The position numbers and the translations under genes were made by a program. 64,000 bases of DNA, taken from contig NC_012865.1 in NCBI RefSeq assembly GCF_000026945.1, positions 620,001 to 684,000 on the forward strand, read 5' to 3'. Position 1 is the stretch's first letter; each line of letters opens with the position of its first letter. This document shows positions 2,108-51,765 of this stretch, piece by piece. A model generated the notes under the pieces. That model saw only the letters and a program-made list of their open reading frames with translations. It ran no database searches and was not told the origin of the DNA. Origin of the DNA: Candida dubliniensis CD36 (lineage: Eukaryota > Ascomycota > Pichiomycetes > Serinales > Debaryomycetaceae).

Positions 2108-5100
2108 ATGTTTAAAGAGTGTATTGGTTGTCTGCAAAAACGTTTGGGTGACGAGCCCGAAGATGATAGATCAAATGTGTTGTGTCCAATATGCAGAATG
2201 ACAAGATATTATAACGCTTACAAAAAATACATAACTTCAAAGTTGAGGTCAAAGTCTAAAGCAAAAAGAACAAGCATCGAACGGAAACTACGAAAATTCA
2301 TGACGAACAAATTCCATATCACAACTAAACTTTATGCATTAAAACAGTTAACTTCGTCTCATAAACTGAAAGAATACTCACAAGTGAAACTTTTTTTGCT
2401 AAGTGATCGTCAGATTAAGTTTATTTTCAATAACAACAAAAATATCTCATCAAGATTATGTCTTCGTGAAATTGAAAGATTGGAATATTCTGATAAGGCA
2501 CAAGAAGAATTACTACAGCTTGAAGAAACAAGTAGTAGCTGCAGATCCTCCGATAATGAAAATAATGATGAAATTGCGGAAGTTCCCAATCGTGCTGGTA
2601 ATTTGGCAGAAGAGCAACCCCTTCCCAACAATCAGAACAGCAAGCAGATTTTCGATACCAATAATAATGGCATTTCTCATAATGTGATAGGGAATGGTAA
2701 TAACGAAGATACTTTAATGAACGATATTGATAACAATGAGAAGTCGCTGCTGCATGTATCTGATGACAGTGAAGTTTCCCAAACACGTACGGGCAATACT
2801 GTTTTGTCCACCGATATTGCAGCAGAGAATTCTAAAAACGGTGCTACTGATTCTGTTATTCTCGATATGCATGAACCTTTGGACTTAGGTTCGAGAAATG
2901 GCTCATGGGAACCAAGTCGTGATGTTTCTCCACCTAACGAGTATGCATTTATCCTCGAAGAACTGCCTTCCACAGTGAAAAGTCCATCCAGTCTTTTGGC
3001 ACCAGACCCAGCCACTGCCGAGAAGCCGATATCACAGGATACCACATTTACTGGTCACGTATACAAATTAAAACCAAGTAAAATTGCAAAACCTTCCCAT
3101 AATGAACGCACAAATGATGCACAATTGCATTTGATGGTGCAGAATTTGCGGAGAAACTTAAGCTCGATTGTTTTTCGTCAAAATCAGTCCCCTAATACTG
3201 ATATGAATGATGCCGCAGTCGACACAACGGCTTCTCCACCTATAACAAACAATTTACCAGAACAGAATAAAACAACAACCCAAGTTGAGCATTCCAGACA
3301 AACTGCATCACCAGAATTAGCTGGTTCAATACCACAATCACATAGTTCAGAAACGTCCACTTTGATAGATAATACGTCACCGGTTACCGACCCAGCAATA
3401 CAAACTACTTTATCACCAACGAAACGATTTGGATGTTGTAAACGACCAAAACCAAGTGATATGCCTCCTGAGTGCTTATCTTTTTCAACATGTCCGCGAT
3501 GCCTTATTAGACATAGACTTCATAGAGATACCTTACAAGCTTTATCAAAAGTCATAAAATTATACGGATTCTATCAAATGCACCGGTACTATAATAAAGA
3601 TAAAGAGTACATCAAACTTGCAATGGAACGTGATCCTTATTTGGAAGAACTTGGTTCTCGAACATTTGATTATTCCATAGAATTGGAGAAATTGAGAGCT
3701 GAAGAAAACAGCAAGATTGAACAATCTCAATCACAACAAAATGCCAGCATAAACCTCAAGTCAGCAACCAATTCGAATAGTCAAAGTTTGACTGATTTAG
3801 AGGTTGTTGAAACTAACAATCAAATTTTTAGAACGCATGATGTACCACAGCAGACTGGAAACTTACTGCAACAGGAAAGTTCTTTCAATAGAGAAAACTC
3901 GGCCCAGGCAGAAAGCTTGCCCATCCAAGAGAATATTGCAAGTCAGGCAAATGTATCTAATCGAGAAAGCTCTCTCGAACAAAATGAAATCCGGAGCGAC
4001 CAACATACTGCTTCTAACGAGAATGCCCTTCCTGTTGAAGACGACTTAGATACTTTGGATAAACATGCAGAAGTTAGTATAAAGCCGGAAGACAATGTTT
4101 TTGAGAATGATACAGGTCATAGCAATGACGATAACCCTGCAACGAGTGACAAAGAAGAAGAAAGTGGTCATGACATCGAGGATAGCAATAACAATGAGAA
4201 TGCTGATACAAACACAAGCACGCATAGAAATAGCTCGCAAGACAATGTGGCCGATCCAAATGAGAATACTCATAATAATGAAAATGATGTCAATGCCAAT
4301 GTTGAAGACAATGCAGGAATTGTTGATGTCCAAAGAAACAGTAATGATAAAAGAGAACACACGGAATCTCAAAATAAAAGTGACAGTATTAGCAAGGTTG
4401 AGTATGGAGATGAAGCTAAGCATATCATTCAGGACAGTTCTACAAATGGAGGTGATAAGCAAAAAGTTACCAATACTGGCAGTGCAAGCACTTCTCCAAA
4501 TGAACCAATAATTCAATTCAATGTCGATGATCTATCGAGAACTTCTTCACTGAATAGTTCGATTCAGGAAATTCCTCAAATTGGAAATCCACCAGTCACC
4601 AGAGCATATTCAGCTCCTATTCAACCAACTTCCTCCTTTGATCCCTCCTCATCACAGCCAACCAATGTATTAAATTCTACTTCTCAAAATATAGACGTCG
4701 ATAAGTTGATAACCACTATAAACAACACAACGATGCCAGAGCGTATTCCAACGCCAAATAATCCCGTCCTGCATGGATTGTTACCTAATCAAGTACAAAG
4801 GTTAAATGATCCAGTGACAACAGGCAGCGTTGCAAGCAAAACTATTTGCTCAATTTGTAAACAAATACGCGAGCCAGATGAGCCATTTCCGGCATCAAAA
4901 TCACCTAGTTGTCCTAAATGTACTTTGAAAGTAGCTTTATTGAAGGGACAAAGTAATACAGTTTTTGGTGTTACCAAACTTTATGCACTCAAGCAAGTCT
5001 ATGAATGGCAGAATTATTCATCATTCCAATTGAGGACTATGTTTTTAGATCAAGATATGTATTTGTCCCAATTCAACACAAGACCATTCAATTTTGTATG

Positions 5101-5497
5101 CGAAATGATTCGATTACTGGGACCGCCATCACCATACCGTCCATTTCAACCCCCTGAGTTCCCACTGTTTCTACAACGAATGAACAGAGTATGTCAAAAA
5201 TGTAACGCTAGCATACTTGATGCTTTCAATGAAATGAAAAACTATTCATGTTGTGCCAAATGTACCTTAGTTGATGGAATTGCCAATGAATATAGTCATG
5301 CATTGCTGAATTCTGTGAAAATCTTGGCTCTCAAACAAGTGCTCGAGGGTAATACTTTAGAAGATAATCAGCTTGTGTTGAAATTTTTATTTGACAAGTT
5401 CTTACAACAATACAAGGGCAAAAAGTTTGATTATGAAATAGAGTTATTAAAGTATAAAACAGGAGATGAAAATTATGATGAATTTCCGTTACACTAA
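2108..5497 (+). CDS. Unrecognised 1129-residue protein with four copies of a CxxC...CxxC plus helical domain
   Basis: I do not recognise this protein. It has four divergent copies of a unit of about 85-125 residues: residues 5-128, 443-530, 914-1005 and 1029-1116. Each unit starts with two cysteine pairs: C5/C8 with C26/C29; C443 or C444 with C462/C465; C914/C917 with C935/C938; C1029/C1032 with C1049/C1052. A predicted helical part follows, with a KLYALKQ-like motif and a closing F-[DN]-[YF]-x2-E-[IL] motif. The spacing between pairs is about 17 residues in every copy. The pairs suggest a structural zinc site (inference). Copies 1 and 2, and copies 2 and 3, are separated by long Asn/Ser/Glu-rich, probably disordered segments; copies 3 and 4 are almost adjacent. 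There is no signal peptide or membrane segment. The ATG at 2108 opens directly into the first CxxC pair, which supports the start. The gene is convergent with the methionine sulfoxide reductase gene. Confidence 0.9.
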   Translation: MFKECIGCLQKRLGDEPEDDRSNVLCPICRMTRYYNAYKKYITSKLRSKSKAKRTSIERKLRKFMTNKFHITTKLYALKQLTSSHKLKEYSQVKLFLLSDRQIKFIFNNNKNISSRLCLREIERLEYSDKAQEELLQLEETSSSCRSSDNENNDEIAEVPNRAGNLAEEQPLPNNQNSKQIFDTNNNGISHNVIGNGNNEDTLMNDIDNNEKSLLHVSDDSEVSQTRTGNTVLSTDIAAENSKNGATDSVILDMHEPLDLGSRNGSWEPSRDVSPPNEYAFILEELPSTVKSPSSLLAPDPATAEKPISQDTTFTGHVYKLKPSKIAKPSHNERTNDAQLHLMVQNLRRNLSSIVFRQNQSPNTDMNDAAVDTTASPPITNNLPEQNKTTTQVEHSRQTASPELAGSIPQSHSSETSTLIDNTSPVTDPAIQTTLSPTKRFGCCKRPKPSDMPPECLSFSTCPRCLIRHRLHRDTLQALSKVIKLYGFYQMHRYYNKDKEYIKLAMERDPYLEELGSRTFDYSIELEKLRAEENSKIEQSQSQQNASINLKSATNSNSQSLTDLEVVETNNQIFRTHDVPQQTGNLLQQESSFNRENSAQAESLPIQENIASQANVSNRESSLEQNEIRSDQHTASNENALPVEDDLDTLDKHAEVSIKPEDNVFENDTGHSNDDNPATSDKEEESGHDIEDSNNNENADTNTSTHRNSSQDNVADPNENTHNNENDVNANVEDNAGIVDVQRNSNDKREHTESQNKSDSISKVEYGDEAKHIIQDSSTNGGDKQKVTNTGSASTSPNEPIIQFNVDDLSRTSSLNSSIQEIPQIGNPPVTRAYSAPIQPTSSFDPSSSQPTNVLNSTSQNIDVDKLITTINNTTMPERIPTPNNPVLHGLLPNQVQRLNDPVTTGSVASKTICSICKQIREPDEPFPASKSPSCPKCTLKVALLKGQSNTVFGVTKLYALKQVYEWQNYSSFQLRTMFLDQDMYLSQFNTRPFNFVCEMIRLLGPPSPYRPFQPPEFPLFLQRMNRVCQKCNASILDAFNEMKNYSCCAKCTLVDGIANEYSHALLNSVKILALKQVLEGNTLEDNQLVLKFLFDKFLQQYKGKKFDYEIELLKYKTGDENYDEFPLH

Positions 5498-12701: not shown

Positions 12702-13382
12702 TCATGTTTTCAATCTTCTTAAACTGTCAGAGGAAGAATCTGATGTTGTGAAGGAAGCATTGACTGTTTCTTCAGATACCACTTGAGACACAATAGTTGA
12801 TCTGCTGGGTGAATTAGCTGAAAAGTTTAACAAATGTAGAGCAGGTGAATCTCCACGATAGGTATACTTAAAATCTCTAGTGGTATCTATAGTTGAATTC
12901 AAAGAATAATTGGAACTAGTGATAGATGGGGTTCTTTCAAGAGGAGGAAATTCGAATGTTTCCGGTAGTATTGTCTCAAATTTAGGGTTTCTGGTTAATG
13001 GCTCTGGTATTGGTGCCACTAATGATGATGATGGTGAAGACATCATTATTGACAGCGCTGTTGATGGAGGAAGTTGTACTTGCAATTCTATTTCAGGTAG
13101 TCTATGTGGTTCCCTTTTTAGAACTGAAATTAAACCAACTGAAAATACAACCACAATACACGCATACAAGATAACGGTGCTAACAAAGTTATTTTGATCA
13201 TAAACACCTTCATCAATTGATGTATTGGTAGTTGGCAATGATAATGGTGTGGCCATCTTATTACTTTCTATTTGTGGAGTATATCTTTCTGGGTTTGGTA
13301 TGGTTATTTTTCGAAGTTGTTCAAATACAAAAAGGATACTCAATTGTATCATTTCAAGTATATATGATATTGAAAAAGACAT
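12702..13382 (-). CDS. Small single-pass membrane protein of unknown function
   Basis: I do not recognise this 226-residue protein. I take the first ATG, at 13382; the frame continues five codons further to a TTG but has no earlier ATG. A hydrophobic N-terminal stretch (residues about 3-20) is followed by a Pro/Thr/Asn-rich segment. A clear membrane segment lies at residues about 64-85 (FVSTVILYACIVVVFSVGLI), followed by a Lys/Arg-containing flank and a Ser/Thr/Pro-rich tail of about 130 residues. The positive flank suggests a cytosolic tail. An alternative start is Met43 (MATPLSLPTT). It is divergent from the Zn2Cys6 gene and could be a small regulatory or cell-surface protein, but nothing proves that. 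Confidence 0.6.
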   Translation of the reverse strand: MSFSISYILEMIQLSILFVFEQLRKITIPNPERYTPQIESNKMATPLSLPTTNTSIDEGVYDQNNFVSTVILYACIVVVFSVGLISVLKREPHRLPEIELQVQLPPSTALSIMMSSPSSSLVAPIPEPLTRNPKFETILPETFEFPPLERTPSITSSNYSLNSTIDTTRDFKYTYRGDSPALHLLNFSANSPSRSTIVSQVVSEETVNASFTTSDSSSDSLRRLKT

Positions 13383-21402: not shown

Positions 21403-27865
<6,463 letters not shown>

Positions 27866-49659: not shown

Positions 49660-51765
49660 TCATTGATGTTTTCTTTTATCAGCTAAACTTTTCAAAGAAT
49701 TAAATAATAAATCAGTAATACCATTAAAGTGTTTAATTTCCAAATTTTCAAGTATAGAAATTTTCAATTCATCAAATGATAATGGTAACCAAATTTTTTC
49801 GTTATCATTTCTTAATCTTAATAAACTTTCTTTTGATATAGGACCTTCATGTCTAGTATTTATACTATCTTTAGTATTATCTTCAATATCCCAAATGATT
49901 TTTGTCACTATATAAGAAAAAGCTGGATTATAAAACAATTCACCAATTGATGAAGGTGAAGATAAATAAGAACAATCAAAAGTATGTAATGAAGTTAATT
50001 TAGTTATAAAATTAGGATGGAAAAAAAACCCTTTATTTGAAGTATTATTACCATCATCAATATTTAAAAATCGTTGTTTCCATAAGAAATTAATTGTATC
50101 CATAATATAAGAATTTTGTAAATTTCGATAATTGATTGAATCTTGATAATTATGAGTTTTACAATTAAATATATGTTGAGTAATATTTGATACCACAATT
50201 GGGTCACAACTTAATAAACATGAATAAGTTAATGATCTGGGGATAATTATTGTTTTAGAATTCAATTGTTGGAATAATGAAGGTGATAAATTTATTAAGA
50301 ATTCAATAATTTGATTCACTAATTGTTCTTGATTATATTTACAATATTTAATAAATTCATATAATTTAGGAAGTAATTGATTAATTCTTGAAATAATGTC
50401 ATTAAGTTTTTCAAATATTCCTAAATTTAATAAATAAAGAATATTTCCCACATATTCATCACATGATTGGTAATTGAAATTACTATTATCTTGGTATAAT
50501 CCATTATTTGTATCATAAATTTGTTTTAAAATTAAAGTATGGTGATGTATCATTTGTAATAATCTCTCAAGGTCAACATTATATAGATATTTTATTAATT
50601 TATATCGATACTTAAATTGTTGACAAAATTTCATAACCAGAATATTTATATCAAGAATGAAATTTTCAATCAGGGGTAAAATAATAGTACCATCACTAAT
50701 TTCATATAAATGGGATATTTGTTGTAAAAAAAATTGTAATTCTTTTTCCAGATTGATAAAAGTTGTTAAAATGGCACCTATATATTTATCAACTTTATTA
50801 ATAAATCGATTATTCCCTGTTTGAAATAATATTGTAAGTAATTTTGCCTCATTATCGTTATCAAATGCATTTCGTACTAATTTATAGGGATTAATTTTAT
50901 TTATTTGATCTAATATTTCAATATTATGAATTATTGTATCAGGTTTGCTAATAATACTAGTTTTCTGTCTCTTGTTGTTGGTGGTGGTAATATGGGCTAG
51001 CTCATCATTATCTTTCCATCGATATACTTGATATAGATTACATTTCAATTTATTCAATAATGGGAAATTTTCTGGAGAATATATTATATAATCCAAATCC
51101 GGATTAAAATTTCTAAAATATGCCAATAATTCTTGTAAATAAATATCTAGAGGGAATTTATTATATAAATTCACCACTGATTGTATATGATTTGATTTAA
51201 GTATATTGATAGTATGATAAATTTCTTGATTATAAAAAGTAATCAATTGATTATGGTTTGATAACATTGAATTTAATAATATTATTATTAATTGAGATAT
51301 TGGACCTCTTGAAAATTCATAATCTAATGATTTTATAAGTAATGTTAAAACAATACTACCTGATTTACATAAATTATTTTCGAAAAATTGGAAATAATTA
51401 ATGATCCATTGAATTAATTTTAATTGTAAAGGAATATTTAATTGTTTAGATTTGAGTTTCCGATCACCTTTAAAATAAACTCGACTAACTCCAATTATAC
51501 TAATTATTTTGAAAAATATATCAATTGATAAATCATCATTAGGAATTAAACATTGATCAAGTAATTTTGTTTTATCAGTTACTTTTAGGGTGGGTTTAAT
51601 GATTTTATCAAGAATAATCATAATTAATGGTTCAGATATTCCATTCTTTGTTAAATTTTCAAGTAGATTTAATGTTGTCTCATTTTCAAGACTATCATTA
51701 TTATCATTTGTCTTGTCTTTATTCAATCTCCCTAATAGGTTTATTATTTCTTCATTAGATGACAT
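49660..51765 (-). CDS. CTF3: Ctf3 / CENP-I (Mis6 family), inner kinetochore protein
   Basis: Ctf3 is a HEAT-repeat subunit of the constitutive centromere-associated network (CENP-H/I/K branch). The 701-residue protein is helical throughout and AT-rich in codon use. The N-terminal part carries the Mis6/CENP-I pattern: LLDQCLIPNDDL, then a short IISIIG, then LQLKLIQWIINYFQFFEN, LTLLIKSLDYEFSRGPIS and VVNLYNKFPLD...LLAYFRNFNPDLDY. The length is near yeast Ctf3 (733). Later parts diverge. The start is the ATG at 51765 (MSSNEEIINLLGRLNKD). It is divergent from APA2 over 235 bases. With MIF2 this is the second inner kinetochore gene in the window. Confidence 0.83.
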   Translation of the reverse strand: MSSNEEIINLLGRLNKDKTNDNNDSLENETTLNLLENLTKNGISEPLIMIILDKIIKPTLKVTDKTKLLDQCLIPNDDLSIDIFFKIISIIGVSRVYFKGDRKLKSKQLNIPLQLKLIQWIINYFQFFENNLCKSGSIVLTLLIKSLDYEFSRGPISQLIIILLNSMLSNHNQLITFYNQEIYHTINILKSNHIQSVVNLYNKFPLDIYLQELLAYFRNFNPDLDYIIYSPENFPLLNKLKCNLYQVYRWKDNDELAHITTTNNKRQKTSIISKPDTIIHNIEILDQINKINPYKLVRNAFDNDNEAKLLTILFQTGNNRFINKVDKYIGAILTTFINLEKELQFFLQQISHLYEISDGTIILPLIENFILDINILVMKFCQQFKYRYKLIKYLYNVDLERLLQMIHHHTLILKQIYDTNNGLYQDNSNFNYQSCDEYVGNILYLLNLGIFEKLNDIISRINQLLPKLYEFIKYCKYNQEQLVNQIIEFLINLSPSLFQQLNSKTIIIPRSLTYSCLLSCDPIVVSNITQHIFNCKTHNYQDSINYRNLQNSYIMDTINFLWKQRFLNIDDGNNTSNKGFFFHPNFITKLTSLHTFDCSYLSSPSSIGELFYNPAFSYIVTKIIWDIEDNTKDSINTRHEGPISKESLLRLRNDNEKIWLPLSFDELKISILENLEIKHFNGITDLLFNSLKSLADKRKHQ

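What the first reader, a model, noticed from the sequence alone, without database searches (positions are those of the whole stretch)
2108..5497. Undescribed four-copy CxxC-x17-CxxC domain with a KLYALKQ helical motif
Seen directly: residues 5-128, 443-530, 914-1005 and 1029-1116 share two Cys pairs about 17 residues apart, then a KLYALKQ-like motif, then F-[DN]-[YF]-x2-E-[IL]. I know no named domain with this layout. Copy 2 has a weakened first pair (F441 stands where a Cys is expected, and C443 is shifted). Copies 3 and 4 are tandem, while copies 1 and 2 are isolated by disordered acidic Asn-rich linkers. Inference: a zinc-stabilised helical module used several times as a scaffold or nucleic-acid binder.
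Basis: partly seen in the sequence, partly recalled or inferred. Interest (0 to 1): 0.75.

Follow-up and report, generated by a model that had tools for sequence, protein, structure and literature searches.

The report
Four-copy yeast zinc-and-helix domain protein
A yeast gene encodes a protein with four copies of a small module that looks like a zinc finger joined to a bundle of helices and matches no family in the catalogues searched; one copy of the same module sits at the front of another protein found in related yeasts, so this looks like a young, expanded family of probable gene regulators.

Summary
ORF 2108-5497 (1129 aa, CTG read as Ser) carries four related ~90-aa modules. A profile built from a different gene family hits all four (copy 1 in two weak pieces); shuffled sequence scores lower. 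The motifs are looser than stated, and copy 1 has a ~26-residue insertion. Pfam, NCBIfam and PDB sequences give no match. AlphaFold models of copies 1 and 3 are confident (pLDDT 88-89, pTM 0.80-0.82) and share one layout: Cys knuckle, second Cys pair at a helix start, then helices. Foldseek finds no significant PDB match. New fact: a fifth, single copy starts a 597-aa protein in the same genome; 94 relatives were found, those with species names being CTG-clade yeasts. The four-copy gene, seen only in this species and one relative, is most likely a fast-evolving duplicate. Best reading: treble-clef-like zinc module, ancestrally basic and probably nucleic-acid binding, here a multivalent regulator or scaffold. 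Zinc and function are inferred. Whether the module equals the published Wor3 DNA-binding family could not be checked by sequence; gene position argues against it.

The parts
2108..5497 (+). ORF of 1129 aa (four-module protein); CTG read as Ser
   Evidence: 3 of 1129 residues differ from P0003
2108..2491 (+). Module copy 1, residues 1-128, Cys 5/8/26/29, about 26 extra residues, KLYALKQ at 74-80
   Evidence: profile hit in two pieces; AF2 of residues 1-139 pLDDT 88.3, pTM 0.82; 81% identical to P0004 over 1-139
2525..3412 (+). Linker A, residues 140-435, acidic, low in hydrophobic residues
   Evidence: net charge -22, 53% identical to P0004; disorder itself not predicted
3422..3697 (+). Module copy 2, residues 439-530; first Cys pair altered to F441-G-C443-C444, second pair C462/C465
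   Evidence: profile hit 21.8 bits; P0004 keeps CRHC there
3713..4822 (+). Linker B, residues 536-905, acidic, Asn/Ser/Gln-rich
   Evidence: net charge -38, 49% identical to P0004
4838..5122 (+). Module copy 3, residues 911-1005, Cys 914/917/935/938
   Evidence: profile hit 14.8 bits; AF2 of residues 905-1010 pLDDT 88.8, pTM 0.80
5186..5455 (+). Module copy 4, residues 1027-1116, Cys 1029/1032/1049/1052 (x16 spacing, extra C1048)
   Evidence: profile hit 18.5 bits; sister of copy 3 in the tree, 91/87; not modelled

Best explanation
The protein is a fast-evolving duplicate of a single-copy protein of CTG-clade yeasts. The N-terminal module of that protein (first CxxC knuckle, second CxxC at the start of a helix, then a helical bundle with KLYALKQ: a treble-clef-like zinc finger with a helical tail) was multiplied within the gene to four copies before this species and its close relative split. 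Proposed working: each intact module holds one zinc ion, and long acidic linkers let the protein hold several partners at once. In the single-copy protein the zinc part is very basic and highly conserved, which fits binding to nucleic acid, probably DNA; here copy 1 keeps a basic face, while copies 2-4 carry less charge and may have moved to protein contacts. So it is most likely a multivalent nuclear regulator or scaffold. Shown: the repeats, their kinship to the single-copy family, the pairing of copies between two species, confident helical models. Inferred: direction of the gene duplication, zinc, nuclear location, nucleic-acid binding, multivalency.
For: Kinship: the single-copy domain finds its own gene and copies 2, 3 and 4 of this gene at E 8.1e-8 to 3.7e-7 and nothing else at E<=1 in this genome; a copy-3 query finds copies 2 and 4 and the single-copy gene; profiles. 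Both proteins begin with the module (first Cys at residue 5 and 6). Order: each copy pairs with its counterpart in P0004 (copies 1, 2, 4 at 98-100/95-99; copy 3 at 88/69), copies 3 and 4 are sisters at 91/87. Narrow range of the four-copy form: only P0003 and P0004. Fast change: 59.8% identity to P0004 against 84.8% for the single-copy protein between this genome and C. albicans. Structure. Charge: modules +15, +5, +5, +3, linkers -22 and -38, first 45 residues of the single-copy protein +10. Conservation: 84 of 94 relatives have C-x2-C-x17-C-x2-C-R within the first 120 residues, and 93 of 94 have the Y-[GA]-[LMF]-[KR]-Q motif.
Against: No binding or metal data. Copy 1, the presumed founder by position, matches the family profile only in two weak pieces, and its profile does not match copy 4 (3%); copy 4 against the single-copy profile gives only 45%. 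The late F-[NSD]-[YF]-x2-E part is present in only 29 of 94 relatives, so the module's far end is not constant. The branch that parts the eight copies from the single-copy domains has 89/81 support, below the tool's mark, so the copies may not form one group. Basic charge is weak in copies 3 and 4. The two AF2 runs used almost the same rows (8 copies and 13 of the 94 single-copy domains), so they are not independent. Copy 2 lacks a Cys in this species yet the protein persists.
Confidence: 0.5

Rival explanations
1. Protein-protein scaffold only: the modules are zinc-pinned helical bundles that bind partner proteins and never touch nucleic acid, in the single-copy protein as well.
For: The bulk of each module is helical; copies 3 and 4 have little net charge (+5, +3); no nucleic-acid-binding family was matched.
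Against: The zinc part of the single-copy domain is extremely basic and nearly unchanged among the rows shown (RRCRRCKRKR...KTCAKCRIIER).
Confidence: 0.3
2. The module is the Wor3 DNA-binding domain already described in Candida albicans, so the domain is known.
For: [quoted passage not shown] the title of Lohse et al. 2013 speaks of a previously undescribed family (reference list of PMC3895265). That the family is confined to a small set of fungi is recalled; our module also has a narrow range.
Against: Only two genes of this genome show the module at E<=1 with two single-module queries. The window gene lies beside a GAF-domain gene that fits orf19.5553, a methionine-R-sulfoxide reductase (the matching is inference), not orf19.467. 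The 80 kb around the other gene show no MAP-kinase or HSF signature in a pattern search, while CEK2 is orf19.460 and should lie near orf19.467. No sequence comparison was possible: the paper is not held and the genome search for the locus did not complete.
Confidence: 0.08
3. A diverged SWIB-like chromatin module: the KLYALKQ half is a remnant of the SWIB fold of SWI/SNF subunits.
For: Profiles of the module hit the SWIB domain of SMARCD (1uhr_A) at E 0.17 and 0.68 over 38-39 positions.
Against: E-values at chance level; no SWIB in Pfam scans up to E 1; SWIB chains are not among the listed fold matches, which does not exclude it.
Confidence: 0.05
4. Decaying gene: the four-copy protein is a duplicate under weak constraint, and copy 2's lost Cys is a sign of that.
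For: 59.8% identity to P0004, copy 2 altered in this species.
Against: The frame is open over 1129 aa in the window, in P0003 and in P0004 (1134 aa); modules are 63-81% identical while linkers are 49-53%; the four Cys of copies 1, 3 and 4 are kept in both species.
Confidence: 0.07

Closest known systems
Unnamed single-copy CTG-clade protein family (P0005 in this genome; P0006-P0099; C. albicans member named 'hypothetical protein MGE_01554')
   Same: One N-terminal module of the same kind, same Cys spacing, LYGLKQ-like motif, similar position near residue 6
   Different: One module instead of four, much more basic zinc part, a separate conserved C-terminal region, Gln-rich stretch in this genome's member
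GATA-type (class IV) zinc fingers
   Same: CX2C-X17-20-CX2C spacing (abstracts in the listing); second Cys pair at a helix start in our models (the GATA structure is recalled)
   Different: No GATA profile among Pfam matches up to E 1; longer helical tail; hallmark residues between the pairs (recalled) not seen
SWIB domain (SMARCD, 1uhr)
   Same: Weak likeness over the KLYALKQ half, E 0.17 and 0.68
   Different: Not significant, no Cys part, no Pfam support
Wor3 DNA-binding domain (Lohse et al. 2013, not read)
   Same: Lineage-restricted DNA-binding family of Candida (recalled)
   Different: Different genes by neighbourhood; sequence not compared

Membership tests
Single-copy CTG-clade module family | C-x2-C-x16-17-C-x2-C followed by an L-x-LKQ-like motif | tested here: met
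   Copies 1, 3 and 4; copy 2 has KLYGFYQ and lacks the first Cys in this species but not in P0004
Single-copy CTG-clade module family | Significant match of the family profile | tested here: met
   Copies 2-4 at 14.8-21.8 bits; copy 1 only in two pieces of 9.3 and 6.7 bits; best of 1000 shuffles 4.4
Single-copy CTG-clade module family | Conserved C-terminal region of the single-copy protein | not tested
   No separate test; the genome search with the whole protein aligned residues 437-575 only
GATA zinc finger | CX2C-X17-20-CX2C spacing | tested here: met
   x17 in copies 1 and 3; copy 4 has x16, copy 2 is broken here
GATA zinc finger | Match to the GATA profile | tested here: not met
   Not listed by Pfam up to E 1 for the whole protein, P0004, P0005 or 21 modules
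GATA zinc finger | GATA fold | tested here: inconclusive
   Not among the listed fold matches; small zinc folds are easily missed
SWIB domain | Significant sequence match | tested here: not met
   E 0.17 and 0.68 against 1uhr_A; no Pfam match
SWIB domain | SWIB fold | tested here: inconclusive
   Not listed
Wor3 DNA-binding domain | Sequence similarity to the Wor3 domain | not testable with these tools
   Paper not held; genome search for the locus not answered (and its repeats)
Wor3 DNA-binding domain | One of the two module genes is the orf19.467 counterpart | tested here: inconclusive
   Neighbourhood argues against both genes, by pattern search and inference
Zinc-binding domain in general | Four Cys meeting at one metal | not testable with these tools

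The most novel reading that the evidence does not exclude
Probability: 0.27. Interest if true: 0.72.

Novelty: new variant of a known kind. Interest (0 to 1): 0.45.

Why it matters
None of the libraries searched here (Pfam, NCBIfam, PDB sequences, PDB folds) describes this module, yet its Cys part and LKQ motif are kept in most of 94 relatives from CTG-clade yeasts, among them human-associated Candida species, at the front of a protein with a very basic zinc part. If it binds DNA it would be a lineage-restricted DNA-binding class. The four-copy gene offers a young, testable case of domain multiplication, in which one copy lost a presumed zinc ligand in one species and kept it in the other.

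Tried and rejected
Known domains: Pfam and NCBIfam on the whole protein, Pfam on P0004 and the paralog, on nine other family members and on 21 single modules. Matches were weak (best E for a module 0.001, Asn_synthase in 6 of 21), differed from member to member, or lay on the Gln-rich stretch (TFIIA, E 4.3e-6, below its cut-off). PDB sequences: none for the whole protein; SWIB at E 0.17 and 0.68 for the profiles, taken as chance.

Range: two protein searches with the window protein returned only P0003 and P0004 (of 7988 and 544 candidates scored). They need shared 5-residue words and a similar length, so shorter or diverged relatives can be missed. One degenerate pattern in prokaryote contigs gave 24 stretches, none confirmed.

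Second Cys site: 62 of 94 single-copy proteins have a further CxxC-x16-CxxC-like site in mid-protein. 60 of these against the N-terminal module gave 1.3% probability (E 0.04 for one comparison), so it is not counted as another copy.

Literature: 'KLYALKQ' 0 papers; orf19.5554, 5555, 5556 0 occurrences; orf19.2071-2074 and 2076 0 occurrences, orf19.2077 in 3 papers; orf19.1439-1443 0 occurrences, orf19.1438 in 2 papers, not read; 'Wor3 domain/family/DNA-binding/-like' 0 papers; four sequence fragments, 8 papers, none about yeast proteins by title. The orf19 numbers tried for our two genes are guesses from neighbourhood and recall, so these searches do not show that the genes are absent from print. 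Papers seen as found passages only: PMC12333994, PMC7793994, PMC4889668, PMC8955749, PMC4777133, PMC5072224, PMC4419840, PMC13170222, PMC2951378, PMC2745568, PMC2607300, PMC3895265; PMC2447501 gave no passage. GATA spacing comes from abstracts in the listing. Lohse et al. 2013 was not read; its content is recalled.

Gene numbers: I first recalled the gene beside the paralog as DFG5 (orf19.2075, note), later as neighbours of CLB2 (orf19.1446); neither was confirmed.
Full report
What is there. The window lies in a 14.6-Mb genome of 8 contigs (G000:C7:620001-684000). Gene content (CRT10, Mif2/CENP-C, Vps18, two aspartyl proteases) and relatives point to a CTG-clade Candida close to C. albicans, perhaps C. 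dubliniensis (inference; no call names it). ORF 2108-5497 encodes 1129 aa; reading CTG as Ser changes 11 residues. P0003 differs at 3 of 1129 residues. P0004 (1134 aa, 294 member sequences, no name given; probably C. albicans, inference) is 58% identical by BLASTP and 59.8% over aligned residues of the table-12 protein.

Are the repeats real? Yes. A profile from 85 of 94 single-copy relatives (nine whose start lacks the first CxxC were dropped) hits the window protein at 3-32 and 49-104 (copy 1, in two pieces), 439-515, 914-987 and 1027-1106, with 9.3, 6.7, 21.8, 14.8 and 18.5 bits; the best of 1000 shuffles scored 4.4. In P0004 the same places score 13.3, 2.7, 35.2, 13.8 and 9.8 bits, so the second half of copy 1 is below the shuffle maximum there. 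A further hit in P0004's linker scored -1.5 and is not counted. Profile-profile comparison gives 93-96% for copies 2-3, 2-4 and 3-4, 74% and 80% for copy 1 with 2 and 3, and 3% for copy 1 with 4; against the single-copy family copies 1, 2, 3 and 4 give 90, 96, 93 and 45%. Invariant in an alignment of 21 modules are the second Cys of the first pair, an Asp, both Cys of the second pair, the Gln of LKQ and a late Glu.

Where it comes from. The whole protein found a second locus in the genome, on G000:C3 (E 1.1e-4). Its 597-aa ORF begins with one very basic copy of the module. That domain alone finds its own gene and copies 2, 3 and 4 of the window gene at E 8.1e-8 to 3.7e-7, and nothing else at E<=1; copy 1 was not listed. 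A copy-3 query finds copies 3, 4 and 2 and the C3 gene, and nothing else. A protein search with the first 110 residues of the C3 protein returned 94 of 152 candidates; those with species names are yeasts that I know as CTG-clade (Candida, Lodderomyces, Scheffersomyces, Spathaspora, Metschnikowia, Clavispora and others), most of the others carry no name. Of the 94, 84 have the exact C-x2-C-x17-C-x2-C-R near the start and 93 the Y-[GA]-[LMF]-[KR]-Q motif, but only 29 keep the late F-[NSD]-[YF]-x2-E part, so the far end of the module varies. The four-copy protein was found only as P0003 and P0004, within the limits of a word-based search.

In a tree of 8 copies and 13 single-copy domains each copy pairs with its counterpart in P0004 (copies 1, 2 and 4 well supported, copy 3 at 88/69), and copies 3 and 4 are sisters (91/87). 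So the four copies predate that split, and the tandem pair is probably the latest duplication. The branch that parts copies from single-copy domains has 89/81, below the tool's mark. The simplest account is a duplicate of the single-copy gene whose module then multiplied; the direction is inferred from the wide range of the single-copy form. The single-copy protein is 84.8% identical between this genome and C. albicans (P0007), the four-copy protein 59.8% to P0004: it changes fast, in linkers (49-53% identical) more than in modules (63-81%).

Copy 2. P0004 reads C439-R-H-C442; the window reads F441-G-C443-C444. The first ligand is lost and a Cys appears two places on; P0003 shows the same. C443 might stand in, or the site may be dead; this cannot be told here. 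Two further Cys differ (window C145 is S in P0004; P0004 C938 is S934 in the window), both outside the CxxC pairs.

How it may work. Modules carry +15, +5, +5 and +3, linkers -22 and -38. The single-copy domain has +10 in its first 45 residues, and its zinc part is nearly unchanged among the rows shown, as expected of a nucleic-acid-binding surface. Copy 1 keeps basic residues; copies 3 and 4 largely do not. I favour an ancestral DNA- or RNA-binding module that became a multivalent regulator or scaffold here. My odds: kinship about 0.9, zinc about 0.85, nucleic-acid binding about 0.5, the whole account 0.5.

Known or not. No Pfam, NCBIfam or PDB-sequence family matches. GATA fingers share the spacing but no profile match. 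Wor3 is the most serious candidate from print: a regulator proposed as a member of a different DNA-binding family (title of the 2013 paper). Against it: the gene beside our ORF has a GAF domain, which fits orf19.5553, listed as a methionine-R-sulfoxide reductase (that yeast enzyme being a GAF protein is recalled), so the window gene is near orf19.5553, not orf19.467. The paralog lies between a glycosyl hydrolase 76 gene and a lysophospholipase gene, with ENTH-domain and cyclin genes beyond; its 80 kb show no MAP-kinase or HSF signature (pattern search), while CEK2 is orf19.460. The sequence of Wor3 could not be compared.

Verdict. A real domain, absent from the libraries searched, repeated four times, with a single-copy relative family. 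New variant of a known kind (zinc-pinned modules), interest 0.45; higher if DNA binding is shown.

Noticed in passing
P0036, P0044, P0060 and others of the single-copy family (e.g. P0044 residue 304): 62 of 94 single-copy proteins have a second CxxC-x16-CxxC-like site in mid-protein (CELC...YRLC..CY.DPY), absent from this genome's member and the Candida rows shown; weak likeness to the N-terminal module.
   Followed up: partly
L002:121-1914 (-), G000:C3:241322-243115: The single-copy protein has a long Gln/His-rich stretch and a conserved C-terminal region of about 250 residues without a Pfam match above its cut-off.
   Followed up: partly
window 23284-24537 and 26690-27865 (+): Two similar secreted-type aspartyl protease genes lie in tandem (Pfam Asp).
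   Followed up: no
window 49660-51765 (-): 701-aa ORF with no Pfam match at E<=0.001.
   Followed up: no
window 12702-13382 (-): 226-aa ORF with no Pfam match at E<=0.001.
   Followed up: no
P0013 (Lodderomyces beijingensis): A source names this family member 'Restriction of telome...' (cut in the listing), but no RTC4 domain was found by Pfam.
   Followed up: partly
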